Positions 5,346-28,908 of a DNA stretch of 64,000 nucleotides are shown piece after piece; position 1 is the first letter of the stretch; each line of letters opens with the position of its first letter. The DNA is from Amycolatopsis jiangsuensis. Its GTDB lineage: Bacteria; Actinomycetota; Actinomycetes; Mycobacteriales; Pseudonocardiaceae. The notes below the pieces were generated by a model. The model was not told where the DNA came from, did not search any database, and saw only the letters and a list, made by a program, of their open reading frames with translations. The position numbers and the translations under genes were made by a program. The stretch covers positions 3,560,501 through 3,624,500 of the forward strand of contig NZ_JACHMG010000001.1 in assembly GCF_014204865.1 (NCBI RefSeq), read 5' to 3'.

Positions 5346-5891
5346 TCACTGAGCGCGCCGTGAATGCACCAGCCGGGTGTACTCGGCCAGCAACGCGGCC
5401 AGGTCGGAATCCGTGCCTTCGGCGAGCAGTTGCTGGTGGCCCACCAGCATTGCCAGCCCCAGCGAGGTGAGAGTGCGGGCCAGCGCACGGTCGCCGATCA
5501 GGCCACGCACCGCCCGGCCGACCGTGCGCACCCGGGCGTCGTCCACGCGTTTCTGCGCGGCCCGCACGGTTTCGTCGTTCATCGACCACGCCCGGATCGC
5601 CGCCTCGGCTTCGTGCGGCAACCCGAGCGTCAATTCCATCAACGCGGCGAAATCGGCGACCGGACCGGCGCTGCCGAAATGTCCGGCGGCGAGGATCCGG
5701 ACCTGCCGCTGCGCCCAGAATTCCAGCAAGCTGTCCACGAATCCGGGCCAGCCGCCGAAGTGGTGGTAGAACGAACCACTGGTCACGCCGAGGTCGCGGC
5801 ACAACCGGCCGACGGTGAGCCCGGCGAACCCGTCGGCAGCCAGCACGGCCAGCGCCGTGTCGAAGTACTGCTGCTTCGTGACCGACGGCAT
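5346..5891 (-). CDS. TetR-family regulator of the acyl-CoA ligase operon
   Basis: A 181-residue protein. The N-terminal helix-turn-helix runs through FAGLTVGRLCRDLGVTSGSFYHHF, and the C-terminal half is helical. Its ATG overlaps the stop of the acyl-CoA ligase by one base (TGATG), so the two are co-translated. A perfect 11-bp-arm palindrome upstream of the ligase is the likely operator, which makes this an autoregulated operon. By analogy with FadR/PsrA-type TetR proteins the ligand could be an acyl-CoA produced by the neighbouring enzyme; that is inference. Confidence 0.92.
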   Translation of the reverse strand: MPSVTKQQYFDTALAVLAADGFAGLTVGRLCRDLGVTSGSFYHHFGGWPGFVDSLLEFWAQRQVRILAAGHFGSAGPVADFAALMELTLGLPHEAEAAIRAWSMNDETVRAAQKRVDDARVRTVGRAVRGLIGDRALARTLTSLGLAMLVGHQQLLAEGTDSDLAALLAEYTRLVHSRRAQ

Positions 5892-7432
5892 CAGATTCCC
5901 CGGCTGCGGTCCTGCCAGTACGGTTCCCGCAGCGTCCGCTTGAGGATCTTGCCGGTGGCGTTGCGCGGCAAGGCTTCCCGCACGTCCACCGTGCGCGGGC
6001 ACTTGTAGTGCGCCAGCCGCTCGCGGCAGTACGCGATCAGCTCGTCCGCATCGACCCGCTCCCCCGGCGACGCCGCGACGACCGCCTTGACCTGCTCACC
6101 CCAGCGATCGTCGGGCACACCGATCACGGCCACCTCAGCCACCCCGGGGAACTCCGCCACGACCCGTTCCACCTCGGGCGAGTACACGTTCTCGCCACCG
6201 GTGATGATCATGTCCTTGACCCGGTCGGACAGGAAGAGGAACCCGCCCTCGTCGAGGTGCCCGACGTCGCCGGTGCGCACCCAGCCGTCCACGACCGTCT
6301 CCGCGGTCGCCTCCGGTTTGCCGAGGTACCCGGCCATCCGCTGGCCGGTGCGGATCCACACCTCACCGGTCGCGTCCGGCCCGGCGATCCGGAGTTCCAC
6401 CCCGGGCACCGGCGTGCCCGCGGACGCCAGGCGCTCCGGGTGCGCGGCGTCGCGATGCGCCTCCGGGTCCAAAGTGGTCACTGCGCCGGACAGCTCGGTC
6501 ATGCCGTACACCTGCACGAACTTCGTGTCCGGCCACGCAGTCAGCGCTGTGCGCAGCACCGGCAACGGCATCGGTGAAGCCCCGTAACCGAGGTACTTGA
6601 TGCGGGCGAACGCGGCGACCGCCTGTTCCCCCGCCTGCACCACGGCAGCGACGACAGCGGGCACCAGGAAGGCGTGCGTGGCGCCCGCGGCGAGCGCGCC
6701 GAACAACGACGGCGCGTCCGGCTCGCGGGTCATGATCGTCGGCTCACCGGAGAGGAAACCGAGGATCGCGTAACAGCTTCCGCCGACGTGGAACAGCGGC
6801 ATGGCAACCAGATTGCGGTCTCCCGGCCCCAGCGGGAACGCGGTGCCCACCGCCGTTCCGTGCGCGAGCACGCTTCGATGTGTGAGAACGGCACCCTTGG
6901 GAAATCCCGTGGTACCACTCGTGTATAGGACGAGCACGCCGTCGTCTTCGTCTACTTCGGACTCTTCGGTACGCGGCTGCGAGCCGGCCACCAGCGCCTC
7001 GAACTCGTCGTCCTCCCCACCGACCACGACCACCTCGCGGACCGCGGGAAGCCGGTCTCGAATGCTCGCCACGACCGGCAACAGCTCGGCACCGGCGAAC
7101 ACGATCTGCGCGCCGGAATCGTTGAGCACGTAGACCAGTTCGTCGGCCGACAGCCGCCAGTTGACGATCGCGGTGGCCGCACCCAGCCCGGCGGCCGCGA
7201 AGGTGACCTCCACACCGGCCGGGTGGTTCTTGTCCACGAACGCGACCCGGTCGCCGCGCCCGATACCCGCTCCGGCGAGCGCCGCGGACAGCCGCCGCAC
7301 GCGTTCGTCGAACTCTGCCCAGGTGCGCGTGCGATCGCCGAAGACGAGCGCCGGATCGTCCCCACGCTGCTCGGCCCACTGCGAAAGGAGCTCGCCGAGC
7401 AAACGGAATCGGGGACGGACGTCTGCGGACAT
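5891..7432 (-). CDS. AMP-dependent acyl-CoA synthetase (FadD-like)
   Basis: A 513-residue ANL-superfamily ligase that activates a carboxylic acid as acyl-AMP and then acyl-CoA. The P-loop VLYTSGTTGFPKGAV is near residue 165. The A5-type motif YGMTELSG, the GWVRTGDVGHLDEGGF hinge region, DRVKDMIITGGENVYSPEVE and the C-terminal catalytic lysine in NATGKILKRTLR are all intact. I placed the start at 7432 (GAAGGGA ribosome-binding site); an ATG at 7534 would add 34 unlikely residues and overlap the upstream gene. Chain-length specificity cannot be read; medium- or long-chain fatty acids are plausible. Confidence 0.92.
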   Translation of the reverse strand: MSADVRPRFRLLGELLSQWAEQRGDDPALVFGDRTRTWAEFDERVRRLSAALAGAGIGRGDRVAFVDKNHPAGVEVTFAAAGLGAATAIVNWRLSADELVYVLNDSGAQIVFAGAELLPVVASIRDRLPAVREVVVVGGEDDEFEALVAGSQPRTEESEVDEDDGVLVLYTSGTTGFPKGAVLTHRSVLAHGTAVGTAFPLGPGDRNLVAMPLFHVGGSCYAILGFLSGEPTIMTREPDAPSLFGALAAGATHAFLVPAVVAAVVQAGEQAVAAFARIKYLGYGASPMPLPVLRTALTAWPDTKFVQVYGMTELSGAVTTLDPEAHRDAAHPERLASAGTPVPGVELRIAGPDATGEVWIRTGQRMAGYLGKPEATAETVVDGWVRTGDVGHLDEGGFLFLSDRVKDMIITGGENVYSPEVERVVAEFPGVAEVAVIGVPDDRWGEQVKAVVAASPGERVDADELIAYCRERLAHYKCPRTVDVREALPRNATGKILKRTLREPYWQDRSRGI

Positions 7433-7457
7433 GCTGAAGTCCCTTCGGCCGGCACTG

Positions 7458-7481
7458 GCACCATAGAGGGCTCTATGGTGC
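7458..7481. promoter_or_regulatory. Perfect palindrome upstream of acyl-CoA ligase (TetR operator)
   Basis: The arms GCACCATAGAG and CTCTATGGTGC are perfectly complementary over 11 bp with a two-base GG spacer. The site sits 26 bp upstream of the ligase start, in the 67-bp gap after the iniC-like gene. Position, size and symmetry fit the operator of the TetR protein encoded at the end of this operon. Confidence 0.7.
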
Positions 7482-7499
7482 GTCGGCCGACCGTCGCCG

Positions 7500-8702
7500 T
7501 CAACCGGTGAACTGCACCAGCAGCCCTTCGACACTGCGCACCACTACGTGCGCGGCCGCACGCTCGGCCGGAGCTCGGTCAGGACGCTCCGCTTCGTGCC
7601 GCCAGCGGAGTACTGCGTCGAGACCGGCTTCGTAAACGTCTTGGGGATCGCTGCCGGTTTCGAGGCCGAGGCGTTCCTCCGGTGTTGTGCCCTGCGCGCC
7701 CAGCAGCTGCACTGCCTCCTCCGCGGGCTCACCGGACAACGCAGTGCGGCCACCACGGATGTCAGCGATCAGCCGTAGCTCACGAAAGTCGTGCGCGGTC
7801 GCCGAAAACCGCTCGACGCGCGCAGCGAGGCGATCACTGTACGGCCGTGGTTCGGCCTGCAGCACAGTCTCCAAACTGATGACCGCCGTCCGGGCGCGGA
7901 GCGCTTCGGCACGTGCGGCGAAACAGCCGGCGATGGTGTCCTGCAGTTCGCCGAGCCCGCTGCGACGCACGAGTTCAGCGGACAGCTTGAGCCTGTTGTC
8001 ACAACCCGTGCGAATCAACGTGAGCGCGAGCTTCACTCCGAACAGGCTGAACCGCGTGACGAGAGAACGCCGTGTCTCCGCCGACACCGGACCAGGGAAA
8101 GCCGGATCGGTGAACGCGTCAACGGAAAGCAGATACCGCTCCAGCTCCTCGCGCGGCACGGCCGCGAAGGCGGCCAGGAGTTCGAACTCGTCGTCGGTGG
8201 ACGCGCGCGCACCGTACCCGAGCTGCGCGGCCACGGCGATCACGCCCTGGAAACCACTGCACACCGGGTCTTCGCGCCACGCGCGACGCGCTAGCTGCTT
8301 CGCGGTGAGCAGCGCGTCGATCCGACCGGCGCCCGTCTCGTCGGCTCGCGCGAGCACCAGCACCGTGTCGACCGCAGTCTGTCGCGCGAAAGTCGAAGAC
8401 GCTGTCGGCCGGAGCGTGGTCAGCTCGTCCGGCTCGAGGTGTCGAAGCAGCTGTACCGACGCGTCGGTGAGAGTGGACGGCGAGGGGTCGTCCACGAGTT
8501 CGAGGTCGCGAAGCGCGCGCGACGGCCAATCACCGAGCGCTGCCGCAAGCGTGGTTTTCCCGGAGCCGGCGGCGCCGGTGACGCCTACGCGCAACGGCTC
8601 GTCGAGATGGTCGAGAGCTTCGCGCAACAACGCAGACGCGCGCCGGCTGTCTCGGTAAAATGCGCACGCGTCGGCCAGGAGCGTACGGACGTCCTCGGTC
8701 AC
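7500..8702 (-). CDS. IniC-like dynamin-family GTPase
   Basis: A 400-residue P-loop protein. The Walker A motif is GAAGSGKTT (residues 43-51), a VLVLARADETG segment follows at the place of the G4 motif, and a long helical stalk makes up the rest. In length, order and type it matches IniC of the mycobacterial iniBAC operon, whose dynamin-like products are thought to remodel or repair the inner membrane when cell-wall synthesis is inhibited. The canonical G4 N/TKxD is degenerate (ARAD), so GTP specificity may be weak. The GTG start overlaps the stop of the iniA-like gene (GTGA), so the two are coupled. Confidence 0.8.
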   Translation of the reverse strand: MTEDVRTLLADACAFYRDSRRASALLREALDHLDEPLRVGVTGAAGSGKTTLAAALGDWPSRALRDLELVDDPSPSTLTDASVQLLRHLEPDELTTLRPTASSTFARQTAVDTVLVLARADETGAGRIDALLTAKQLARRAWREDPVCSGFQGVIAVAAQLGYGARASTDDEFELLAAFAAVPREELERYLLSVDAFTDPAFPGPVSAETRRSLVTRFSLFGVKLALTLIRTGCDNRLKLSAELVRRSGLGELQDTIAGCFAARAEALRARTAVISLETVLQAEPRPYSDRLAARVERFSATAHDFRELRLIADIRGGRTALSGEPAEEAVQLLGAQGTTPEERLGLETGSDPQDVYEAGLDAVLRWRHEAERPDRAPAERAAAHVVVRSVEGLLVQFTG

Positions 8703-10471
8703 GCGGAAAGCTCCTTCGGTGCCCGTCCCGCGCGCAAGCCGAGCTCGCCCGCGCGCTGGTGCAACGCGGCGAGCCGGTCGATCTCACGGCGCAGCCGGGC
8801 AGTACGGCGTTCCCGCTCGGCCGAACCGGCGATGATCGTCTCGCGCTCGCGCGACAGCTCGTCGGCGAGATCGTCGGCAAGCGCGGTGAAATGGTCCCGC
8901 AACCTCCGCTGCACATGGCGGATCGCGTCGCGGCAGTCCTTGCTGAACCGCAGGAACACGTCGTCGACATGCCGTTGCGCGGTCATCTTCGCCACGGCCT
9001 GGCGACGTTGCAGCCGCATCCCGCCCTCGTCGCTGATCGTCTTCGCGGCGAACGCCACCCCGGCACCCAGTGAGATCGGGTTGAGCAGTGGCAGCCCGGC
9101 CAGACCGGTCACCAGTCCGAACATCAGCACCCCACCGTAGGAACCGCGGAGCCCGGTGAACGCCTTCTGGCCGATCTTGAACCGTTCGATGCGCGGCTGC
9201 CGGACCTCCGCGATCTGGTCGGCGCCGGACTCGGGCGGCGTCACCTCCGCGAGGTCGTACTGCACGCCGAAGGTCGCCGCCACGGCCTGCGCGATCCACT
9301 CCGCGCGGTCGGCGGTGAAGGTGTAGGTGGTCTCGACAGCCTCCGCGAGCGTGCGGTCCAGCCAGGGGCCGAATTCGTCCCACACCTTCACCGGATCACC
9401 CCGGTCGAACGTCTCATCGATCGTCTCGACGATCCGCCGGGTGCGCTCCCGGAGATCGTATTCGGCGTCCGACTGCAGATCGGCGATCTCGTCGGACAGC
9501 AGGTTCTGCCAGCGGCTGTTGCGGCGGCGGAGTTCGTCGGCCCGGCGCTGCGTGCGGTGCAGCAACGTGGCCTGGTCGACCCCGGCCTCCTGCCCGGCGG
9601 CCTCGGCACGCAGCCGTAACGTCTCCACGAGCTCGGCGGCCGCGGCCCGCACGCTCACCGCGGCCAGCAGCGCGGCGCGGGTTTCCGGCGGCTGCGAGAC
9701 CTGCCCGGCGATCCAGCCGAGCAGCTCCGGGAAGCCGGACCGGATGTTGAGCTCCTGGTCCCCCGCCTTCGCCGCGGCGAACCGGACGGTCGAGGACACC
9801 GGTAGCACGGCCGCGTCGATTCCCGCCTCGGACAGTGCCGCGCGGTTTCGTTCGGCGACCGCCCGCCAGCTGGGACAGACATCGATCTTGGTCAGCGCCA
9901 CCACGAGGTGCGGGCACCAGGTGCGGATGTGGTGCGCCAGGGCGAGCTCGGCAGGGCCGAGCTCCGTCGTGGCGTCGGAGACGAGGACGACCGCGTCCGC
10001 GTCGGCCAGCACGTCCAGTGCGGCCATCGTCCTCGGGGACCGCGGATCCCCGACCGCGGGCGTGTCGACGAGCACCAGGCCCGCGGAGAGCAGGTCCCGC
10101 GGCACGCCGACCTCGACACGCCGCAGCGAGCCGGCAGGCCGCGCGCCGACCTCTCCGGTCAGCCGTTCGACGGGCACCTCGACGCGTTCCTCGGCACGCC
10201 CGACGAGCGTCGCACCGGGTTCGGCGGCATAGCCGATCTCGACCGGAACCGCCGGGGTGGGTGCGTCGCCGACCGGGCAGACCGGTGCGTTGAGCACCGC
10301 GTTGACCAGGTAACCCTTGCCTTGTTTGGCGAACCCCAGCACCGCGATCCGGGGGCCTCTTGCCGGCCGGTCCCGGCGCCGGTGCAACCGCTGCGCCAAG
10401 TCCGCCCGGCCGTGCGCCCGGCAGGCATCCAAGGTCTCGTCGAGCACTTCGAGCCAAGCAGGAGCCGTCAC
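8699..10471 (-). CDS. IniA-like bacterial dynamin GTPase
   Basis: A large GTPase of about 590 residues. The G1 motif is GFAKQGKG (about 46-53), G3 is VDTPAVGDP and G4 is LTKID. A long helical stalk follows, with a hydrophobic glycine-rich paddle at about 460-500 (LVTGLAGLPLLNPISLGAGVAF split by short breaks) that would insert into membrane. This architecture is that of IniA, a dynamin-like protein known in mycobacteria to act on membranes. I propose the GTG at 10471 because the sequence upstream is not protein-like; no strong ribosome-binding site supports it. It is the second gene of an iniB-iniA-iniC operon and overlaps iniC by four bases. Confidence 0.82.
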   Translation of the reverse strand: MTAPAWLEVLDETLDACRAHGRADLAQRLHRRRDRPARGPRIAVLGFAKQGKGYLVNAVLNAPVCPVGDAPTPAVPVEIGYAAEPGATLVGRAEERVEVPVERLTGEVGARPAGSLRRVEVGVPRDLLSAGLVLVDTPAVGDPRSPRTMAALDVLADADAVVLVSDATTELGPAELALAHHIRTWCPHLVVALTKIDVCPSWRAVAERNRAALSEAGIDAAVLPVSSTVRFAAAKAGDQELNIRSGFPELLGWIAGQVSQPPETRAALLAAVSVRAAAAELVETLRLRAEAAGQEAGVDQATLLHRTQRRADELRRRNSRWQNLLSDEIADLQSDAEYDLRERTRRIVETIDETFDRGDPVKVWDEFGPWLDRTLAEAVETTYTFTADRAEWIAQAVAATFGVQYDLAEVTPPESGADQIAEVRQPRIERFKIGQKAFTGLRGSYGGVLMFGLVTGLAGLPLLNPISLGAGVAFAAKTISDEGGMRLQRRQAVAKMTAQRHVDDVFLRFSKDCRDAIRHVQRRLRDHFTALADDLADELSRERETIIAGSAERERRTARLRREIDRLAALHQRAGELGLRAGRAPKELSA

Positions 10472-10516
10472 GACGATGCAGTGTCCCCCAGGTACGGGGA
10501 GTATCGGAAGCGGGTG

Positions 10517-10553
10517 GTGGCTCCGCGGGCGCACCCAGCCCGCGGAGCCACCT
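10517..10553 (-). terminator. Strong hairpin between iniB-like and iniA-like genes
   Basis: A perfect 15-bp GC-rich stem (GGTGGCTCCGCGGGC against its complement) with a 7-nt loop lies 27 bases after the iniB-like stop and 46 bases before the iniA-like start. No U-tract follows on the minus strand. It is therefore more likely a partial terminator or an mRNA-stabilising hairpin that lets the repetitive IniB protein be made in excess over the GTPases. This role is inferred. Confidence 0.6.
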
Positions 10554-10579
10554 CCGGTACGGCGCTATTCAGCCTCTGT

Positions 10580-12010
10580 TCAGAGGGAAAGGTGCAGCTC
10601 GCCGCCGCCGTGCGAGGTCTCGGCACCTGCGTGCAGGTCCAGGCCGAGCCCGTCGTGAGCGGCGTCGGACACCGAGGACACGGTGTCGTGAACGGCGCTG
10701 ACCCCGGCGTCGGTGCCGTGGTGCACCGCGGTGTCGGCGCCGGCGCGCTCGGCACCGAGGTCCGGCGCGCTGTGCGAGAGCGACTGGACCTGATCGGTCG
10801 CGGTGTCCGCGACGTGGTTCAGGCTCTGCGCGCTGAGCGCGCCGGACAGGCTGCCGACGTGCCCGGTGGCGGTGCCGACCAGGTCGCTGACGTGACCCGC
10901 CGCGCCGCCACCGGCCTCGGCCAGGTGGTCGGCCATCTCGCCGGCCGGCTGCGCGGCAGCCGCGACGTCACCGGTGGACACCGGCGACGCGTCGGCGACC
11001 TGCCCAGCCACGTCCTGCGCCTGCCCGGCTACGTCCTGCGCCTGCCCGGCTGCCCCGGCGATACCGGCCGTACCGGCTGCTTGCGCGACCGGGGCGGAGT
11101 CCAGCCCGTGGGACAGGTCGTCACCGAGGGAGAACACATTGGCCGGGTCCTGCGCAATCCCGCTGACCGAGCCGATGGCGTCCTGCACCTCGCCGGCCCC
11201 CGGCACGGACGGCAGGTCGCCCGTGGGCAGACCGGGCACCGCGGGAACCGCGGGGATCCCCGGCACCGCCGGCACCCCGGGCGCACCCGAACCGACCGGC
11301 ACACCCGGCACGGACGGCGCACCCGAGCCGGCCGGAACACCGGGCAGGCCGGGCACCGAGGGCAGCTCGCCGACAGCCGGCAACCCGGGCACCGAAGGAA
11401 GCCCACCGACATCAGGCAGCCCAGGCACGTCACCGGCCGAGGGCAGCCCCGGCACCGAAGGCAGCCCACCAACGTCAGGCAGCCCAGGCACGTCACCGGC
11501 CGAGGGCAGCCCCGGCACCGAAGGCAGCCCACCAACGTCAGGCAGCCCAGGCACGTCACCGGCCGAGGGCAGCGACGGCAGCCCCGGCACCGAAGGCAGC
11601 TCACCGACACCCGGAAGCCCCGGCACCGGCGAAGGCTCACCGGCGCCGGTCACGTTCGCCAGGTCGCCGGTCGAAGGCAACGACGGCAGGCCCGGCACGG
11701 ACGGGGCGCCGACCGCGGGGAGGCCGAGGGACGCGGTGAGGGCCTGGAGCTGGTCGATGGCACCCTGGGGACCGTCCGAGACGGCACCGGTCAGGTCGCC
11801 CGCCTGCGGCAGCTGGCCGAGCGCGGCCGCGTTGTCCACCGGGATGTAGTCGAGTACCAGCGGGAGGACGTCGTGCACATCGGCGGCGCTGATGTCACCG
11901 AGCCCGGCGGCGGCGAGCGCCGACTGCGGGTCCTGGCCGAACGAAGCCAGCGCGGCCGGGTCGCTGAGCAGGGTGAGCGTGAAGTCGTGCAGAGTCTGCA
12001 CCGGGTCCAT
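10580..12010 (-). CDS. IniB-like protein with Gly/Pro/Val tandem repeats
   Basis: The 476-residue product starts with a compact IniB-type N-terminal domain (LHDFTLTLLSDPAALASF, residues about 6-50). A long low-complexity region built from PGLP, GLPSVP and GDVPGLPDV units follows, then an Ala/Gly/Asp/His-rich tail. There is no signal peptide. Three nearly exact 21-residue repeats lie in the middle. Mycobacterial IniB is of similar length and also Gly/Ala rich; it heads the iniBAC operon induced by cell-wall inhibitors. The start at 12010 has GGAG nine bases upstream. The gene is divergent from the Hsp70-like gene. Confidence 0.82.
   Translation of the reverse strand: MDPVQTLHDFTLTLLSDPAALASFGQDPQSALAAAGLGDISAADVHDVLPLVLDYIPVDNAAALGQLPQAGDLTGAVSDGPQGAIDQLQALTASLGLPAVGAPSVPGLPSLPSTGDLANVTGAGEPSPVPGLPGVGELPSVPGLPSLPSAGDVPGLPDVGGLPSVPGLPSAGDVPGLPDVGGLPSVPGLPSAGDVPGLPDVGGLPSVPGLPAVGELPSVPGLPGVPAGSGAPSVPGVPVGSGAPGVPAVPGIPAVPAVPGLPTGDLPSVPGAGEVQDAIGSVSGIAQDPANVFSLGDDLSHGLDSAPVAQAAGTAGIAGAAGQAQDVAGQAQDVAGQVADASPVSTGDVAAAAQPAGEMADHLAEAGGGAAGHVSDLVGTATGHVGSLSGALSAQSLNHVADTATDQVQSLSHSAPDLGAERAGADTAVHHGTDAGVSAVHDTVSSVSDAAHDGLGLDLHAGAETSHGGGELHLSL
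11399..11575. repeat. 63-bp tandem repeat in the iniB-like gene
   Basis: A 63-bp unit recurs with identical phase at 11429, 11492 and 11555, preceded by a slightly diverged partial copy. It encodes 21 residues (SAGDVPGLPDVGGLPSVPGLP in pieces of PGLP-type blocks). Because 63 is a multiple of three, copy-number change keeps the frame open, so this is a candidate length-variable tract. Confidence 0.85.
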
Positions 12011-12311
12011 GGGGGGGATCTCCACTTGTCGTCTTACGGGGAAAGCCCGACCCTCCCCGGCCGGGCTGGCGATCAAGGTAGGGAGGGGGCACCCCCGCTC
12101 ACATCGGGGTTTACACCCAGTCGCGCCTCGCTCAGCCGTTAGGGGGTCGATATGAGATCGTTAGGGAGTTAGGGGATAGGACACGCGGAACCCGGTTGGG
12201 TTAAATCCGACCCCACTCTTGCCCGATTAACTCAAACGGGTGAGGATGCGTACTCGTTCCGTGATTGCGCCACCTGGCCCAGCCCTGCTGCGACGAAGGG
12301 AGGAAGCGGCG
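12011..12311. promoter_or_regulatory. Divergent iniB / hsp70-like control region with GTTAGGG repeats
   Basis: A 301-bp non-coding spacer between the divergent iniB-like and Hsp70-like genes. Three direct copies of GTTAGGG lie at 12138, 12160 and 12168, and the last continues as GGGGATAGG, reminiscent of a MalT box. An AACCC/GGGTT inverted repeat follows at about 12190-12203. The neighbouring regulator is MalT/IniR-like, and MalT-type proteins bind arrays of short direct repeats. These repeats are therefore good candidates for its operator. Promoter elements were not assigned. Confidence 0.55.
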
Positions 12312-14051
12312 GTGCCCCACGTGCTCGGCATCGATGTCGGACCGGCCCGGACCCACGCCGCGACCCGTCACGGAAACGGCGAGCGGTGGGCCGATCCGGA
12401 ACCCCTGTGGCTGGGTGACACCGGCCCCGCCGCCGCGACCGCGCTCTTCCTCGACGACGAGGGTTACCTGCTCACCGGCGATGCCGCCGCGGGAGCGGGC
12501 GCCGGCGAGCCGTCCCGCTTGATCACCGGGTTCCACCGTCGCATCGGCGACGACGTCCCGATGTTCGTGGGCGGCGAACCGTTCACCCCGGAATCACTGA
12601 CCACCGTCGTCGTCGAAGGCGTCGCGGACCTCGCGAACGACGGCACGAGCCCGGCACCCCAGCACCTCGTCGTCACCCACCCCGGTGACTGGGGCGGTTA
12701 CCGTCGCGAACTCCTGCGCCAAGCACTGGCCGACGCCGGCTTCCGCGCGGCGACGCTCGTACCCAGCGCGGTCGCCGCGCTGTACGCGCACCTTCCACAC
12801 CCGGGCCCGGACGACCGGACAGCCGCGGTGTGTGAATTCGGCCCGGACGGCGTCACGATCACGCTGGCGACCTCGTCCGGCGCGGGTGGCTGGATTTCCC
12901 GCACCAGCACCGAGGGGGTGGCGCCCGCAGCCGCGGTGAGCAACGCGTTCGCCCTGGCCCACGCCGCCGCCGTCACCCCGGAAGCACTGGCCGGCATCGT
13001 CTTCTGCGGAGAACCCGGCCCCGGCACACTGCCCAGTCGCCTACCGTGCCCGGTGTTCGCCGACCCGCACCCCGCCCTGACCGCCGCCACCGGCGCAGCC
13101 GTCCTGGCCTCGCAACGAACCGGCGCCCTACCCTCCCAGCGCCCGGGCATCCCACGACACCCCGACGCCACCCGAGCCCCCGCCGCCCCACGCGAAACCG
13201 ACGACGCCCTACTGCAAGACCCCGATGCCCGGACACCACATCGTCCCGACGCACACGGCCCGGGCGCGCACGACACCGACACACAGGGCCGCAACGCGCA
13301 AGGTCGCAACGCACACGGCGCAGACACACACGGCCCCGACGCGCGGGGACGCAACACGCAAGGCCGCGACACTCACCGCGGCGCCGACACACCGGGTCGC
13401 AACACGCAAGGCCGCAACGCACACGGCGCAGACACACACGACCGCGATACACAGGGGCGCAACGCACCCGGCGCCGACGTACACGGCCCCGACCCGCGCG
13501 GGCGCAACGCACAGGGCGCAGACGTGGAGCGCCGCGACGCGCACGGCGCCGACGCCCGAACCCGGCGCTCGCCCGACGCCGTTGCGGAGCCGGGCGGCGC
13601 GCTCGCACCGTCGGACCAGCGTTCCGGTGCGCTCACTCGGTCCGAGCGGCGTACCGGCACTTGCGCAGCGTCCCGAACCGGCTCCCGCGCCCGGCAGCCT
13701 CACGGCCGCGATCCACGCCGCCACGACGTCCTCGACCAGTCCGTCCGGCCCGGCGCGGAGACCGTTTTGCTGCCGCGCGTCGACGAGCTTGCCGACCTGC
13801 CCGAGCGGCCCGAACGGCCGCCGGTCGAGATCACCCCGTTCGAACTGCCCGAGCCCGAAGGTGTCGCGAAACTGTTCCGCCGGTGGCGTCCGCTCGCCGC
13901 CGCGGCCGCCGTGCTCGCGATCGCCGCGTCCGTCCTGATCGCCACCCTGTCGTCGCATCCGGCGACAGCCGACCGAAATCCCGTCCCTCCCCCTGCCCCG
14001 AGCTCGTGCAGCCGCCCGGCCACGGCTCCCTCCGGTGAAGGTCACTGTTGA
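12312..14051 (+). CDS. Hsp70-like ATPase domain protein with repeat linker and C-terminal membrane anchor
   Basis: A 579-residue protein. Residues 1-270 form an actin/Hsp70-type fold starting LGIDVGPARTHAA (phosphate 1 loop) with VVTHPGDWGGYRRELLRQAL further on, as in actinobacterial Hsp70-family proteins. A linker of about 100 residues is made of five-residue repeats (HGADT, QGRNA, HGPDA). One transmembrane helix lies at about 525-548 with a short tail outside. There is no substrate-binding domain, so it is not a true DnaK. The GTG start has GGGAGG upstream. It is coupled to the LuxR regulator by a 4-base overlap, suggesting that the pair forms a membrane sensor and regulator for the iniBAC-like operon. 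Confidence 0.78.
   Translation: MPHVLGIDVGPARTHAATRHGNGERWADPEPLWLGDTGPAAATALFLDDEGYLLTGDAAAGAGAGEPSRLITGFHRRIGDDVPMFVGGEPFTPESLTTVVVEGVADLANDGTSPAPQHLVVTHPGDWGGYRRELLRQALADAGFRAATLVPSAVAALYAHLPHPGPDDRTAAVCEFGPDGVTITLATSSGAGGWISRTSTEGVAPAAAVSNAFALAHAAAVTPEALAGIVFCGEPGPGTLPSRLPCPVFADPHPALTAATGAAVLASQRTGALPSQRPGIPRHPDATRAPAAPRETDDALLQDPDARTPHRPDAHGPGAHDTDTQGRNAQGRNAHGADTHGPDARGRNTQGRDTHRGADTPGRNTQGRNAHGADTHDRDTQGRNAPGADVHGPDPRGRNAQGADVERRDAHGADARTRRSPDAVAEPGGALAPSDQRSGALTRSERRTGTCAASRTGSRARQPHGRDPRRHDVLDQSVRPGAETVLLPRVDELADLPERPERPPVEITPFELPEPEGVAKLFRRWRPLAAAAAVLAIAASVLIATLSSHPATADRNPVPPPAPSSCSRPATAPSGEGHC
13252..13562. repeat. 15-bp minisatellite coding for pentapeptide units
   Basis: About twenty imperfect 15-bp units encode five-residue blocks of the type [QHR]G[RAP][DN][TA]. 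They form the linker of the Hsp70-like protein. The pattern is not the classical A(D/N)LXX pentapeptide fold because the central leucine is absent. Units such as HGADT and QGRNA recur several times, which indicates recent slippage or unequal exchange. Confidence 0.8.
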
Positions 14052-17000
14052 ACGCACTGCTGGCGAAAACCGACACCGTGCACCCCGCGGCCCGCCGGCT
14101 GTTCGCGGGACACAACGCCTCCGCGACCCCAGTCCGGCTGGTCGTCGTCGCTCCCGGTGGCTACGGCAAAACCGCCCTCCTGGACGCGCTGGACCGCGGT
14201 TACCGAGCAGCGGGCGTCGATGCCACCCTGATCGACGACGCAGACCAGCTCGACGACGAAAACCTGGCGAAGCTCACGATGCTGGCCGCCTCCACCGACG
14301 GCCCGCTCGTGGTGGCGCACCGCCCGAACCCGCGCGCCGACGCCCTGCGTGGCCTGGGCGAAACGTTCCTGCTGCCCGCACTGGAGGTGGACGAGGTCGC
14401 CGAACTCGCCCGCCATCTGACCGGCCACACCGTGAACCCCACCGAAGCCGCCGCGCTGCATACCCGTACCGGCGGGGTCCCACGGCTGGTCGAACGCGTC
14501 GTGACGAATCGATGGGACGACTTCCGCACCGACTTGGCCGCACTGGACGACGACGTGCTGCGTTACCTCATCGCGTCCGAAGCCGGAGCAAGCCGCAATC
14601 TGGACCTGCTGTGCGCATTGCTGAAACGCACGCCGCACGCGCTGTCCGTGGTCGTGGACGGTGCCCGCGCGACCGGCCTGCTGGATCCCGAAGACGCGCT
14701 GCTGCCCGTCGCCGCGCAAGTCGTACGCACCTACGCCCCTCCCGCTCGGCGCTTGGCTGTCGTACAGCAGCTCGTGGAAACCCAGCTACGCCGAGGCCTG
14801 CCGATACTCGACCTCGCGTGCGCGCTGCTGGACGCGGGCAGCTCCGGCGCCTCCGCAGCGACCGCGTTCGCCACCGCGGCCCACGAAGCGCTGCCCAACG
14901 ACCTGAAACTCGCCGCCCGCCTCTTCGAAGCAGCCACCGACGCAGGCGCCCATGACGCAGCGACCACCACCGGCTGGGCCCGAGCCGCGGCACTGTCCGG
15001 AGACTTGGACACAGCCCTGCGCCTGGGCGACGGCATGCTGTCCGACGAGAACCCGGAGTCCCGTGCCGCAGGAGCGGAGATAGCCGCCACCGTCCTGGCC
15101 CACCGGGGCGAACTGGCCCGAAGCGCCGAGCTCTACCGCTGGGCAGCTGCCACCGACAACACCCAACGCTCCATCACCGCACCGACGTACGCACCGCGCC
15201 AGCCGCAACCCCACCCGTCGGCGCCCCACGCGCCTACCGAAACCCACACCCCGCCTCAGCCGTGCGCAACGTCACCAGCCCATGCCGCGGCACCCTCCTC
15301 CGCAGCGCCCACCCCAGCGACGTACTCCACGTCGCCCGCCCAAGCTCCGGGGCCCTATCCCCCACCCCCAGCGCGCGCCTCAGCGAGCTATCCCACACCG
15401 CCAACCCACGCTTCGGCGCCGGATGCCACAGTGCAAGCCGATACCCCGGTGCCCTACTCGACGCCGCCCGATCACGCGCCCTCGGTCCCGCATTCCGCAG
15501 CATCCGCGCACGCCGCATCGGCCGACCCCACGTCACCGGCGGGCTTTGATCCGTCGCAGGTGCCGGTGGCGTCCTCGATCGGCGAGACTCCGATCCAACC
15601 GGACACTTCGTTGTCCGCGGCCCCCGATCACCACACCGTCGGCCTCGTCGCCGGGCATGACGACCTCGCCTCCGGCGGACCGCACTACCTCGATCAGGGC
15701 GTCCTCGGCGACGGTTCACGCTCTCCGCGTGCTTTTCCCGGAAGTCACGCCGTCGGGGAGAGCTATCGGTGGGCCGGGCCCGGCGCGGTCGATGCCTTCG
15801 CCGCGATCACGCTCGTCGGCACCGGACAGGTCGCTGGTGGACGCGCGCTCGCGGAAGCTCCTGTCCCCGGGGTGGCGCCGACGTTGTTCACCGGCGCGGT
15901 GACGCGGACCGCGAACGGCATAGTGGAATCGGTGACCGGTCACGGCACCGAGGCGCTGCCGGAACTCGTCGGAGCCGCGGCGATGCTCGAACCGGCCTTC
16001 GCCGGAGCGCCGCTGCCGGACAGCCCGGCCGCGCTCGCCGCGCTCGCCGGTCTGCACTCGGGGGAGCTGGCTCTCGCGGAGTCGGTACTGCAGCGCGCGC
16101 TGGCCAACGGAGTCGGCGGCGACCTGCTCGTCCCTCGCCACCGGCTGCTGCTCGGCTGGGTCGCCATGACCGGTGGCCACCTCGCCACGGCGGCCGAACA
16201 CCGGGACGCCGTGGCCGGCACCAAGCTGGAAGCCCGCGACGAGCTGTTCTTCGCCACGCTCGAACTGGGCATCGCCCGGCGGACGAGCGACCTCGTCGGC
16301 CTCCAGCAGTCGTGGGACCGCGCTTACCAGGCGTCCATGCGCCAGCAAGTGGACCTTTTCACCCTGCTCCCGCTGGGAGAGCTGGCGATCGCCGCCGCGC
16401 GAACCGGCGCGCACGCGAAACTCTCCCGTCGTCTGGAGCGAGCCCACGCGATGCTCGGCCAGCTCGGTTACCCTCCATTGTGGACGGTCTCGCTGTGCTG
16501 GCACGAACTCCACGCCTCGATCACTTCGGAGGATCGCGCGGCTGCCGAACGGCAGCTCTCCGCACTGGCCGGGTTCGCGGACTGTGGACGCTATCCGGCC
16601 GCGCTCGCCCGCGCCGCGAAATGCTGGCTTTCGGTGGTCGGCGGCGCCTTCGATCCGGACGAGATCTCCGCAGCCGCCGCGGAGCTGCACGAGCTCGATC
16701 TTTGCTGGGACGCCGCCCGGCTGGCCGGACAGGCCGCGATCCGCACCTCCGACCGCAAGGCGATGGTCCAGCTCCTGGAAGCAGCCCGCCAGTTCCAGGG
16801 CACCACCGGTCGTCTCGAGTCTCCTGCCCCGGCCGCCGGCACCGTCCCTGGGCTCAGTGTCCTGAGCGAACGAGAGCTGGAGGTCGCGCGCCTGGTGGTC
16901 GACGGCCTGACCTACAAGCAGGCGGGCAGCAAACTCTTCATCTCCGGCAAGACCGTGGAACACCACATGGCCCGCATCCGCGGCAAGCTCGGCGCCTCCG

Positions 17001-17059
17001 ACCGCCGGGAACTGCTCGCCACCCTGCGCGAACTGCTCGTGAAGCCCGCCCAGTCCTGA
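14048..17059 (+). CDS. Large MalT/IniR-like LuxR-family regulator
   Basis: A 1003-residue STAND-type regulator. The N-terminal P-loop is APGGYGKTALL (about 35-45), as in MalT, with a LIDDADQL Walker B-like segment. A helical NTPase/arm region follows, then a Pro/Ala/Thr-rich insert of about 130 residues (roughly 375-510), a second helical-repeat region, and a C-terminal LuxR helix-turn-helix (LSERELEVARLVVDGLTYKQ, about 937-995). The start is a TTG overlapping the Hsp70-like stop (TTGA), so translation is coupled. IniR of mycobacteria is a regulator of this type encoded near iniBAC. The product is probably the iniBAC activator here, with ATP and an unknown effector as inputs. Confidence 0.82.
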   Translation: MNALLAKTDTVHPAARRLFAGHNASATPVRLVVVAPGGYGKTALLDALDRGYRAAGVDATLIDDADQLDDENLAKLTMLAASTDGPLVVAHRPNPRADALRGLGETFLLPALEVDEVAELARHLTGHTVNPTEAAALHTRTGGVPRLVERVVTNRWDDFRTDLAALDDDVLRYLIASEAGASRNLDLLCALLKRTPHALSVVVDGARATGLLDPEDALLPVAAQVVRTYAPPARRLAVVQQLVETQLRRGLPILDLACALLDAGSSGASAATAFATAAHEALPNDLKLAARLFEAATDAGAHDAATTTGWARAAALSGDLDTALRLGDGMLSDENPESRAAGAEIAATVLAHRGELARSAELYRWAAATDNTQRSITAPTYAPRQPQPHPSAPHAPTETHTPPQPCATSPAHAAAPSSAAPTPATYSTSPAQAPGPYPPPPARASASYPTPPTHASAPDATVQADTPVPYSTPPDHAPSVPHSAASAHAASADPTSPAGFDPSQVPVASSIGETPIQPDTSLSAAPDHHTVGLVAGHDDLASGGPHYLDQGVLGDGSRSPRAFPGSHAVGESYRWAGPGAVDAFAAITLVGTGQVAGGRALAEAPVPGVAPTLFTGAVTRTANGIVESVTGHGTEALPELVGAAAMLEPAFAGAPLPDSPAALAALAGLHSGELALAESVLQRALANGVGGDLLVPRHRLLLGWVAMTGGHLATAAEHRDAVAGTKLEARDELFFATLELGIARRTSDLVGLQQSWDRAYQASMRQQVDLFTLLPLGELAIAAARTGAHAKLSRRLERAHAMLGQLGYPPLWTVSLCWHELHASITSEDRAAAERQLSALAGFADCGRYPAALARAAKCWLSVVGGAFDPDEISAAAAELHELDLCWDAARLAGQAAIRTSDRKAMVQLLEAARQFQGTTGRLESPAPAAGTVPGLSVLSERELEVARLVVDGLTYKQAGSKLFISGKTVEHHMARIRGKLGASDRRELLATLRELLVKPAQS

Positions 17060-26541: not shown

Positions 26542-27126
26542 GAAGCGAAGGTGTACTCCGCATCTCGTAGGGAAGAGACTACACCCCGGGTCGGCCCGGT
26601 TCCGATGGGGGTCGGTAGCTCGGCAGCGGCGACGGTGCCAGGAGATGTGGGCGTGACACGCAAGAGCGCAGAGTGCTCGTCACATAACTCTCTGCGCTTA
26701 CGATGCACGGTGCATTCGCCGGCGGTGACGCCACCGGCGTGTGCCGTTGGGCGCTCGGTGCGGGCAGCCGAAGCTTGAGTGCGATAGCTCGGCGGGGTGG
26801 CCAACGTGGTAGTCCAGCTGTACACCTGCGTCGGGACAAACGCGCAGAGCTGGCGATTCCGCGAGAACGGTGGCGGTTGCAGGCGGGCGCGCGAGACGGG
26901 GGCGGGATTCGCTCCGGGGAGGAGGCGAGAGGTCCTGATGCGGTGCGGCGCTCGCCCGGGCCATGGTGGCGTGACCAGCGGGGGCGGGGCGTTCCCGGGT
27001 CGTTCGGCGTTGGCTGGTTCGTGAGCGGGGCACCGGGCTGGTGCGGGGAGACGGCGGGCCGGTGATGCTTCTCCATGGCGGTACGCCTGTCATTCCTCCA
27101 GCGCTCGATCGTTCACACTTACCTCT
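26542..27126. other. Gap between tRNA-Ala and beta-helix gene, nothing certain
   Basis: The 585 bp hold several open frames on both strands, but none has recognisable family sequence or consistent codon use. A short plus-strand stretch near 27050 reads GGPVMLLHGGTPV, reminiscent of an alpha/beta-hydrolase oxyanion strand, but nothing before or after supports a gene. The promoter of the beta-helix gene must lie at its right end. Confidence 0.5.
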
Positions 27127-28800
27127 GTGGGTGGCACTACTTCTCCGAAGGCGACGCAGCCGGATCTGGGACCGAACGTCGTGATCTTCGATCCGTCGAT
27201 GCCGAGCGAGAGCATCCAGAACAGACTGGACAGCATCTTCGCGCAGCAGGAGAAGAACCAGTTCGGCGACGAGCGGTACGCCGTGCTGTTCACCCCGGGC
27301 ACCTACTTCAACGACGTCAACGTCGGCTTCTACACCCAGGTCCTCGGACTCGGCAGCACGCCCGACGCGGTCACCATCAACGGCGCGGTCCACGTGGAGG
27401 CCGACTGGTTCCCGCCGAACAATGCCACCCAGAACTTCTGGCGCGGGGCGGAGAACCTGTCGGTGAACCCGGCGGAGGGCGCGGACCGCTGGGCGGTCTC
27501 GCAGGCCAGCCCCTACCGCCGGATGCACGTCCGCGGGGATCTCCAGCTCGATGACGGCGGCTGGTCCAGCGGCGGGTGGATCTCGGACACGAAGATCGAC
27601 GGCCAGGTCCGCTCCGGATCGCAGCAGCAGTGGATCTCGCGGGATTCGGAGTTCGGCAGCTGGTGCGGCTCCAACTGGAACATGGTGTTCCTGGGCGTGC
27701 ACGGAGCGCCGACCGGGACCTTCCCTTCCCCGCCCTACACCACGATCGACGGCACTCCGGTGGTGCGGGAGAAGCCGTTCCTCTACGTCGACGACGGGGA
27801 CTACCGGATCTTCGTGCCGGCGCTGCGCACCGCGACCGCCGGCGTGACGTGGGCGAACGGCCCGGCACCCGGGACCTCGTTGCCGATCGGCCAGTTCCAC
27901 GTCACGAAGCCGGGCACGACCGCGGCCGAAATGAACGCAGCACTCGCTGCCGGCAAGAACTTGCTGGTCACTCCCGGCGTGTACCACCTCGACCAGACGG
28001 TGCAGGTGACCCGGCCGGGCACGGTGGTGCTCGGCCTCGGCATCGCCACGTTGGTCCCCGACCGGGGAATCACCGCGATGGACGTCGCCGACGTGGACGG
28101 TGTGAAGGTCGCCGGACTGCTGATCGACGCCGGTACCACGAACTCGGACACACTCATGCGAGTCGGGCAACCGGGCTCGCGCGCCGACCATGCGGCGGAT
28201 CCGACCTCGCTGCACGACCTGTACTTCCGGGTCGGCGGCGCGGTGGCGGGCAAGGCCACCACGAGCCTGGTCGTCAACAGCAACAACGTGATCGGCGACC
28301 ACATGTGGATCTGGCGCGCCGACCACGCCGCGGACGGCGGCTACGTCGGATGGGACATCAACACCGCCGACACGGGACTGGTGGTGAACGGCGCCGACGT
28401 GACCACTTACGGCCTTTTCGTCGAGCACTACCAGAAGACCCAGGTCGTGTGGAACGGAGAGGGCGGCCGTACCTACTTCTTCCAGAACGAAATGCCTTAT
28501 GACGTGCCGGATCAGGCCGGCTGGATGGACGGTTCGGCGAAGGGTTATTCCGCCTACCGGGTGAGCCCGGAAGTGACCAGCCACGAGGCCTGGGGACTGG
28601 GCAGCTACTGCTTTTTCAGCAGCAACCCCTCCGTGGTCGCCGCGCGGGCGTTCGAGGCACCGGAAACTCCGTACGTCCGATTCCACGGCATGGTGACCGT
28701 GTCGCTGAACCACCAAGGCGCCATCCAGCACGTGATCAACGACGCCGGCGACCCGACTCCGGACGGGACGAAGCCGGTGAACCTGGTGAGCTACCCGTAG
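27127..28800 (+). CDS. Right-handed beta-helix protein (actinobacterial 'coagulation factor 5/8'-type family)
   Basis: A 557-residue protein with the strand-turn rhythm of a pectin-lyase-like beta-helix: VVIFDPSMPSESIQNRLDSI at the start, then YAVLFTPGTYFNDVNVGFYT, and later KNLLVTPGVYHLDQTVQVTR and TTSLVVNSNNVIGDHMWIWR. The Streptomyces family with this core is often annotated as factor 5/8 domain or adenylyl cyclase, with little basis; a carbohydrate-acting or surface role is more likely. The attached carbohydrate-binding domain and signal peptide found in relatives are missing here. The start is a GTG without ribosome-binding site, so the true N-terminus may be lost or leaderless. A strong hairpin follows the stop. 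Confidence 0.7.
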   Translation: MGGTTSPKATQPDLGPNVVIFDPSMPSESIQNRLDSIFAQQEKNQFGDERYAVLFTPGTYFNDVNVGFYTQVLGLGSTPDAVTINGAVHVEADWFPPNNATQNFWRGAENLSVNPAEGADRWAVSQASPYRRMHVRGDLQLDDGGWSSGGWISDTKIDGQVRSGSQQQWISRDSEFGSWCGSNWNMVFLGVHGAPTGTFPSPPYTTIDGTPVVREKPFLYVDDGDYRIFVPALRTATAGVTWANGPAPGTSLPIGQFHVTKPGTTAAEMNAALAAGKNLLVTPGVYHLDQTVQVTRPGTVVLGLGIATLVPDRGITAMDVADVDGVKVAGLLIDAGTTNSDTLMRVGQPGSRADHAADPTSLHDLYFRVGGAVAGKATTSLVVNSNNVIGDHMWIWRADHAADGGYVGWDINTADTGLVVNGADVTTYGLFVEHYQKTQVVWNGEGGRTYFFQNEMPYDVPDQAGWMDGSAKGYSAYRVSPEVTSHEAWGLGSYCFFSSNPSVVAARAFEAPETPYVRFHGMVTVSLNHQGAIQHVINDAGDPTPDGTKPVNLVSYP

Positions 28801-28814
28801 CCACCACCCGGACA

Positions 28815-28854
28815 ACCGGTGCACGCCGCGGTGGCGGCCGCGGCGTGCACCGGT
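28815..28854 (+). terminator. 17-bp-stem hairpin after the beta-helix gene
   Basis: ACCGGTGCACGCCGCGG and its exact complement enclose a 6-nt loop 15 bases after the stop codon. The U-tract is weak (CCTCACTTTC). Such long GC stems commonly terminate transcription in actinobacteria. It separates the beta-helix gene from the signalling operon that starts at 28909. Confidence 0.75.
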
Positions 28855-28908
28855 CCTCACTTTCGCCGGTCTCCGCCGGAGACGCCACCACGCCGTAGGC
28901 TGTCGTCC

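What the first reader, a model, noticed from the sequence alone, without database searches (positions are those of the whole stretch)
7500..17059. An iniBAC-like envelope-stress locus with a divergent Hsp70-like/IniR-like sensor pair
An IniB-like repetitive protein, an IniA-like dynamin and an IniC-like P-loop protein form an operon, as in mycobacteria. Directly divergent is an Hsp70-fold membrane protein coupled by a TTGA overlap to a 1003-residue MalT/IniR-like LuxR regulator. In mycobacteria IniR controls iniBAC; here an actin/Hsp70-type ATPase appears to be built into the control circuit. This suggests a membrane-anchored sensor-regulator complex for cell-wall damage.
Basis: partly seen in the sequence, partly recalled or inferred. 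Interest (0 to 1): 0.72.

Follow-up and report, generated by a model that had tools for sequence, protein, structure and literature searches.

The report
Ini stress locus with degenerate Hsp70 partner
This soil actinobacterium carries the same cell-envelope stress locus that mycobacteria switch on under cell-wall drugs, and comparison shows that an Hsp70-derived protein with worn-out catalytic residues is a standing but little-noticed member of such loci, here joined by dynamin-like proteins that also seem to have lost GTP hydrolysis.

Summary
At 7500-17059 lie IniC-, IniA- and IniB-like genes (minus strand) and, divergently, an Hsp70-derived membrane protein overlapping an IniR-like regulator by TTGA. 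The genus is Amycolatopsis. The Hsp70-like gene lies directly upstream of iniR in 105 of 124 IniR loci examined (4 of the 19 misses are contig ends) and is present in all 125 examined loci with both IniA and IniC, some without IniR. It thus tracks the dynamin pair at least as closely as the regulator. In the papers seen it appears only as a 'dnaK-like gene' beside iniR in M. smegmatis. Further: (1) an oriented TTAGGGG box occurs in 106 of 119 divergent intergenic regions (164 copies one way, 1 the other), the likely IniR operator; (2) the Hsp70-like protein has lost Hsp70 catalytic residues in 102 of 105 loci where it adjoins iniR, but by few ancestral events; (3) in Amycolatopsis IniA lacks the P-loop Ser and switch-1 Thr (19 of 19 rows, 18 genomes); the Ser is needed for hydrolysis in M. 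smegmatis IniA, yet selection stays purifying. Best reading: a non-hydrolysing Hsp70-derived coupler between dynamin pair and IniR. The coupling is inferred, untested.

The parts
7500..8702 (-). IniC-like dynamin-family protein, 400 aa; P-loop kept, switch-1 region deleted, G3 motif altered
8699..10534 (-). IniA, dynamin-like protein (611 aa; probable start 10471, 590 aa); P-loop GKG instead of GKS, Pro instead of switch-1 Thr
10580..12076 (-). IniB-like repetitive protein (probable start ATG at 12010)
12139..12145 (+). TTAGGGG box 1, predicted IniR operator
12161..12166 (+). TTAGGG box 2 (followed by A), predicted IniR operator
12169..12175 (+). TTAGGGG box 3, 8 nt from box 2, predicted IniR operator
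12240..14051 (+). Hsp70-derived protein (probable start GTG 12312): degenerate nucleotide-binding domain, expanded repeat linker, RPPVEITP motif, TM helix, short tail ending EGHC
14048..17059 (+). IniR-like ATPase/LuxR regulator, 1003 aa, TTG start overlapping the Hsp70-like stop codon

Best explanation
This is an ini envelope-stress locus of the kind found in Mycobacteriales. Shown: homology of the parts, stable gene order, a conserved oriented TTAGGGG box between the two transcription units, loss of catalytic residues. Inferred: IniR (ATP-binding, MalT-like) binds the boxes when the envelope is damaged and turns on iniBAC, probably with its own hsp70-iniR operon. The Hsp70-derived protein is a non-hydrolysing partner that sits at the membrane in this genus and links the IniA/IniC dynamin pair to IniR, so that the effectors' state (free, or recruited to damaged membrane) can feed back on the regulator. 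In Amycolatopsis the dynamins themselves are predicted not to hydrolyse GTP and to act as a membrane coat or tether rather than as a scission machine.
For: Hsp70-like gene directly upstream of iniR in 105 of 124 IniR loci (recounted in 117); present in 125 of 125 examined loci with IniA and IniC, 10 of them without IniR in the stretch. Boxes in 106 of 119 intergenic regions, 164 forward to 1 reverse, 189-fold denser than in the rest of the loci; without the 7 named genus loci 99 of 112, 150 to 1; the only TTAGGG copies in the 64 kb window; recognition helix KTVEHH 98-100% conserved over 123 IniR rows. Catalytic residues lost in 102 of 105 iniR-adjacent copies. IniA P-loop Ser to Gly and switch-1 Thr to Pro/Ala in 19 of 19 Amycolatopsis rows; of 120 other rows 119 have Ser or Thr at the first site (one gap) and 115 Thr at the second. 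In M. smegmatis IniA S50A or R63A drastically lowers hydrolysis, and the double mutant forms puncta but gives no fission or tolerance (PMC6715688, passages). dN/dS 0.13-0.50. Hsp70-like distances correlate with IniC (partial r 0.25) and IniR (0.23) more than with IniA (0.09). ChIP peak of IniR upstream of iniBAC (PMC5760070, passages).
Against: No physical interaction is shown; no Hsp70-IniR fusion ORF was found in the loci. The link between adjacency and degeneracy is not independent: degeneracy needs only 3 changes on the tree, and the pair test has too few pairs to decide (p = 1). In 11 of 124 IniR loci both genes are present but apart (L061, L064-L067, L105, L128, L133, L187-L189). 49 of 112 adjacent rows have no TM segment. 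R63 is Arg in only 24 of 120 IniA rows outside the genus, so GTPase requirements may differ between groups. The structure prediction failed (pLDDT 36.5). TTAGGGG as IniR site rests on conservation alone; it is missing in 13 of 119 regions, and IniR loci L128, L166, L187 and L189 have no TTAGGG in the whole stretch. Another regulator, HpoR, is reported on the mycobacterial iniBAC promoter at a different motif (PMC13413693, passages).
Confidence: 0.45

Rival explanations
1. The Hsp70-derived protein serves only the dynamin pair (recruitment, assembly or disassembly at the membrane) and lies beside iniR merely because the operon is convenient; it has no part in signalling.
For: It accompanies IniA/IniC without IniR (L167, L168, L169, L183, L190; also L181 and L191, where another AAA-LuxR protein lies near); L190 has IniA-IniC-Hsp70 in one operon with 4-nt overlaps; IniR paralogues without IniA/IniC (L157, L159, L162) have no Hsp70-like gene in the stretch.
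Against: Directly upstream of iniR in 105 of 124 IniR loci; partial distance correlation with IniR about as strong as with IniC.
Confidence: 0.3
2. One reading: a membrane-anchored Hsp70-type ATPase senses cell-wall damage and gates IniR by its ATPase cycle.
For: TM helix and a short tail with conserved Cys in Amycolatopsis (35 of 36 rows read end in EG[HR]C); intact relatives in L184 and L185 carry a C-terminal beta-propeller and lie next to LuxR-type response regulators.
Against: Catalytic residues lost in 102 of 105 iniR-adjacent copies; TM absent in 49 of 112 adjacent rows; Pfam HSP70 not hit by the window protein.
Confidence: 0.15
3. The locus is decaying in Amycolatopsis: nucleotide sites are lost because the system is losing its function.
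For: Loss of nucleotide motifs in Hsp70-like, IniA and IniC together; low-complexity expansions in the window copy.
Against: No internal stop codons in IniC, IniA, Hsp70-like and IniR of the four genomes compared and dN/dS 0.13-0.50; double box beside the Hsp70-like gene in 53 of 60 genus genomes (with 77); Hsp70-like match at E 1e-60 or better in 50 of 60 genus genomes, weaker in the other 10.
Confidence: 0.1

Closest known systems
Mycobacterial iniBAC operon with IniR (M. tuberculosis/M. marinum/M. smegmatis)
   Same: IniB-IniA-IniC order on one strand, divergent IniR-type regulator, IniB N-terminal domain, IniA by sequence; TTAGGG pairs also upstream of iniR and between iniB* and the iniA side in five unnamed loci with that layout (L061, L064-L067).
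   Different: An Hsp70-derived gene overlaps iniR; no separate iniB* gene; IniR is 1003 aa and under the equivalog cut-off; IniA and IniC lack GTPase residues.
Bacterial dynamin pairs (Campylobacter Cj-DLP1/2, Streptomyces DynA/B)
   Same: Two dynamin-like proteins side by side in an operon (PMC6104087, passages).
   Different: No Hsp70-like partner is named for them in the passages seen; here it is constant, and the GTPase motifs are degenerate.
Hsp70/DnaK
   Same: Nucleotide-binding-domain homology by profile, 5.3e-60.
   Different: No substrate-binding domain seen, about 95 residues missing, catalytic residues lost, C-terminal TM anchor; not a chaperone by these features.
MalT of E. coli
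   Same: ATPase with LuxR-type HTH; asymmetric direct-repeat sites (MalT boxes, recalled).
   Different: Box sequence, partners and the inferred signal differ; only the HTH matches the MalT model.

Membership tests
iniBAC operon | IniA homologue, dynamin-like by sequence | tested here: met
   6j72, E 1e-89 over residues 28-588
iniBAC operon | IniB N-terminal domain | tested here: met
   NF038175, 74.7 bits, cut-off 40
iniBAC operon | IniC, second dynamin-like protein directly after IniA | tested here: met
   family profile to 2j68 and 6j72; 4-nt overlap with IniA
iniBAC operon | induction by cell-wall inhibitors | not testable with these tools
   needs RNA data
IniR (NF038181 equivalog) | score over the curated cut-off of 750 bits | tested here: not met
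   377 bits; only 24 of 298 order genomes pass it. Filed as an IniR-like homologue, not as the equivalog
IniR-like regulators | N-terminal P-loop ATPase, middle domain and LuxR HTH with conserved recognition helix | tested here: met
   two stretches that together span the model; helix KTVEHH conserved
Hsp70 | nucleotide-binding-domain homology | tested here: met
   through the family profile: DnaK 5.3e-60; the single protein is not hit by Pfam HSP70, 21 of 25 family members are
Hsp70 | catalytic residues (DnaK K70, E171, D194, T199; numbering recalled) | tested here: not met
   H, S, E, G in the window protein
Hsp70 | substrate-binding domain | tested here: not met
   linker, TM helix and short tail follow the first domain
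dynamin GTPase (active) | P-loop Ser/Thr and switch-1 Thr | tested here: not met
   IniA Gly and Pro; IniC switch-1 region deleted
IniR regulon | IniR binds TTAGGGG | not testable with these tools
   conservation only

The most novel reading that the evidence does not exclude
Ini-type dynamin systems are four-part machines: two dynamins, a repetitive IniB and a dedicated Hsp70-derived coupler that began as an active ATPase working on the dynamins (as in the IniA-IniC-Hsp70 operon of L190, outside the order) and was later wired to IniR, losing its catalysis. In Amycolatopsis the effector NTPases have lost hydrolysis, so that an entire dynamin-based stress response runs by nucleotide-independent assembly, reported to the promoter through the Hsp70-derived protein.
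Probability: 0.3. Interest if true: 0.82.

Novelty: new variant of a known kind. Interest (0 to 1): 0.62.

Why it matters
The iniBAC response is a well-known reporter of cell-wall drug action in mycobacteria, and how damage reaches IniR is not settled. A constant but little-noticed Hsp70-derived neighbour is a named candidate for that link, and a conserved box gives a direct operator test. Amycolatopsis offers a natural experiment on whether dynamin-like proteins need GTP hydrolysis to protect the envelope. Held papers: iniBAC with Hsp70 gave 1, an unrelated review by title; iniBAC with dnaK gave 7, of which only the iniR paper was opened, with one sentence on the gene; bacterial dynamin with Hsp70 and operon gave 3, one opened, Hsp70 only in its reference list; dynamin with DnaK-like and actinobacteria gave 0; iniBAC with TTAGGG gave 16 listings, unrelated by title. 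Most subscription papers are not in this library.

Tried and rejected
First relatives search failed by machine error and was repeated with the folded part of the protein only. Hsp70-IniR fusion proteins: none among the ORFs of the window and the loci. The idea that adjacency to iniR causes loss of Hsp70 catalysis: strong as a raw table but not independent on the tree, so kept as a correlation only. AlphaFold2 of the Hsp70-like protein (first row from Amycolatopsis jejuensis, 8 close relatives): mean pLDDT 36.5, uninformative, no fold search run. The RPPVEITP linker as a remnant of the Hsp70 interdomain linker: suggestive (69 of 112 adjacent rows, 0 of 40 others) but not tested further. Distribution across the phylum: IniR in 8 of 296 genomes, 6 of them of the order. 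Weak dynamin-like loci as controls: 12 of 15 fetched have no Hsp70-like gene over 180 bits, 3 do (L192, L202, L203); L192 and L202 fall outside the ini clade, L203 is not in the thinned tree. The second structure job was not used: the rule admits only window proteins and loci of named searches, which are too alike to deepen the alignment.
Full report
What is there. The window lies in an 8.0 Mb genome; 59 of the 99 relatives drawn share its genus, and the 8 loci found with an 83-85% identical IniA are named Amycolatopsis. On the minus strand lie IniB-like (10580-12076), IniA (8699-10534) and IniC-like (7500-8702) genes, IniA and IniC overlapping by 4 nt; on the plus strand an Hsp70-derived gene (12240-14051) and an IniR-like gene (14048-17059) overlap by TTGA. 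IniA matches the solved M. smegmatis IniA at 1e-89. IniB passes the IniB_NTERM cut-off. IniC alone gives only weak P-loop hits, but a profile of 13 IniC proteins hits bacterial dynamin (1e-16) and IniA (7.6e-14). The regulator scores 377 bits on the IniR model, cut-off 750, so I call it IniR-like.

The Hsp70-like protein. Alone it has no Pfam hit and a weak DnaK match, 1.6e-5. A profile of 25 family members hits DnaK at 5.3e-60, and 21 of the 25 hit Pfam HSP70. In Amycolatopsis about 95 residues of the nucleotide-binding domain are missing and DLGGGTFD reads EFGPDGVT or close to it. One TM helix and a short tail follow. Of 40 genus rows tried 36 were read by the script; 35 of them end in EG[HR]C with the same TGTTGA junction to iniR (some genomes enter twice). 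The window copy has an expanded repeat linker, 579 aa from its probable start against 380 in the 7 relatives of A4.

How widespread. The IniR model gave matches in 115 of 298 genomes of the order and in 8 of 296 of the phylum, 6 of these in the order. IniA gave 134 of 298, including weak dynamins. I fetched 119 IniR neighbourhoods and one companion contig, 20 stretches chosen for IniA or Hsp70-like hits, most of them apart from a listed IniR, and 20 from the phylum search plus weak dynamin-like controls; with the window, 161 stretches entered the counts. Three IniA hits of over 200 bits were not fetched (G266 second copy; G265 and G125, on other contigs than their IniR). Of 124 loci with IniR, the Hsp70-like gene is directly upstream in 105. 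The 19 others: 4 contig ends (L080, L089, L101, L148); 5 with the layout iniR-iniB* and the Hsp70-like gene beyond iniC (L061, L064-L067), the layout closest to that described for the studied mycobacteria; 6 with IniR elsewhere in the cluster (L105, L128, L133, L187-L189); 3 IniR paralogues with an IniB-like gene only (L157, L159, L162); and L166, which has IniA and a weak IniC but no Hsp70-like gene. The table was corrected by inspection: L114 and L182 to adjacent, L179 to unknown.

What the Hsp70-like gene follows. All 125 examined loci with IniA of 400 bits or more and IniC of 200 or more have it, 115 with and 10 without IniR in the stretch; three of the ten are contig-split (L149, L179, L186). 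Of the other seven, L181 and L191 have another AAA-LuxR protein nearby. Five IniA-like genes without IniC have no Hsp70-like gene (L175-L178, L180). Part of the set was chosen for Hsp70 hits, so the IniR-less cases are not a random sample. In L190 IniA, IniC and Hsp70-like form one tight operon without IniR; in L165 IniA, IniC, Hsp70-like, IniR and IniB lie on one strand with intact Hsp70 motifs, an arrangement that looks intermediate. Chance is small: the window's own genome has six Pfam HSP70 matches in 8.0 Mb, so a random 17 kb stretch would hold one about once in a hundred; cannot give this rate because it scored five candidates per genome.

Catalysis. Four residues of Hsp70 catalysis are all kept in 3 of 105 iniR-adjacent copies (L156, L165, L182) and not in 102. 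Of non-adjacent copies outside the window's genome 23 are intact and 17 degenerate, the latter being second copies in iniR clusters of one family, the five L061-type loci and L133; 10 partial or contig-edge rows and L179 were left out, and the 7 named genus loci (all adjacent and degenerate) are not in the 105. On a tree of 107 rows (thinned at 85% identity, short search) 102 rows fall together (98%) apart from DnaK; six of these do not lie at IniA loci. Degeneracy needs only 3 changes, adjacency 6, and the pair test gives p = 1 with too few pairs to decide. So the association is real as a pattern and unproven as cause.

GTPase motifs. In 19 of 19 Amycolatopsis IniA rows (18 genomes, L044 and L164 being one) the P-loop Ser is Gly and the switch-1 Thr is Pro or Ala; of 120 other rows, 119 have Ser or Thr at the first site (one gap) and 115 Thr at the second. 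In M. smegmatis S50A and R63A, singly or together, drastically lower hydrolysis; the double mutant forms puncta but does not cut membrane or give tolerance (PMC6715688, passages). R63 itself is Arg in only 24 of 120 other rows. IniC of the genus lacks the switch-1 Thr region in 19 of 19 rows and the G3 glycine in 17 of 19; but IniC motifs are loose elsewhere too: of 115 other rows 59 have that Thr, 65 the G3 glycine, and 10 have Arg for the P-loop Lys. dN/dS in four of the six pairs of four genomes is 0.13-0.24 for IniC, 0.17-0.32 for IniA, 0.20-0.30 for IniR and 0.27-0.50 for the Hsp70-like gene, so these do not look like pseudogenes.

Operator. TTAGGGG occurs in 106 of 119 divergent intergenic regions; 164 copies point with hsp70-iniR, 1 against; density is 189 times that of the rest of the loci. 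Without the 7 named genus loci it is 99 of 112 and 150 to 1. The window has three TTAGGG copies in all, at 12139, 12161 and 12169. A double box lies within 300 nt of the Hsp70-like gene in 53 of 60 genus genomes; misses are G001, G002, G013, G028, G040, G045, G051 (by eye). The pattern read backwards, as control, gave matches in most of these genomes too, but their places are not listed. The IniR recognition helix KTVEHH is almost invariant over 123 rows. No TTAGGG occurs in the IniR-less loci L167, L168, L169, L181, L183, L190, L191, nor in L128, L166, L187 and L189, which do have IniR. The iniR paper reports a ChIP peak upstream of iniBAC and prints no such box in its main text (PMC5760070, section 10 and passages). 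A 2026 paper reports a second regulator, HpoR, at a palindrome in the iniBAC promoter of BCG, and prints no such box either (PMC13413693, passages).

Mechanism. IniR is described as the iniBAC activator in M. marinum and M. tuberculosis and as responding to trehalose (PMC5760070, title, passages and section 10). The likely circuit here is IniR on TTAGGGG boxes activating both units. The Hsp70-derived protein is best placed as a coupler: its distances follow IniC (partial r 0.25; 0 of 300 permutations as high) and IniR (0.23; 2 of 300) more than IniA (0.09; 23 of 300) in 56 loci thinned from 103. This is indirect. Membrane anchoring is seen in 63 of 112 adjacent rows only, so the anchor cannot be essential to the general mechanism.

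Novelty. Each gene family is known and a dnaK-like neighbour was noted once. Not met in the searches (listings, with passages of four papers) are the constancy of that neighbour, its catalytic decay, its presence with the dynamins without IniR, the oriented box and the loss of GTPase residues in Amycolatopsis.

Noticed in passing
L184 4506-11292; L185 3696-7729; L173 6868-12020: Related intact Hsp70 proteins beside LuxR-type response regulators; L184 also has a dynamin-like GTPase. In L184 and L185 the Hsp70 protein carries a beta-propeller in its C-terminal part: a possible second sensor system of this kind.
   Followed up: partly
L157, L159, L162: A second IniR with a divergent IniB-like gene but no dynamins and no Hsp70-like gene in three Amycolatopsis genomes; TTAGGGG (L159, L162) or ATAGGGG (L157) between them.
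   Followed up: partly
window 12011-12138: A second conserved element, CATCGGGG, between the boxes and iniB, in 70 of 119 intergenic regions (63 of 112 without the named genus loci).
   Followed up: no
window 13249-13555: Tandem 15/45/60-nt repeats expand the linker of the Hsp70-like protein; IniB carries 63-nt repeats at 11379-11580; IniR is also longer than in the congeners.
   Followed up: no
L175-L178, L180: Solitary IniA-like proteins with Met in place of the P-loop Lys and no IniC, Hsp70-like or IniR in the stretch.
   Followed up: no
window 5891-7534: Acyl-CoA ligase directly downstream of iniC on the same strand; possible operon member.
   Followed up: no
window 26698-30540 and 30543-31901: Two adjacent minus-strand ORFs of 1280 and 452 aa without Pfam hits at 1e-5; an RHS-repeat protein at 61915-63921.
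   Followed up: no
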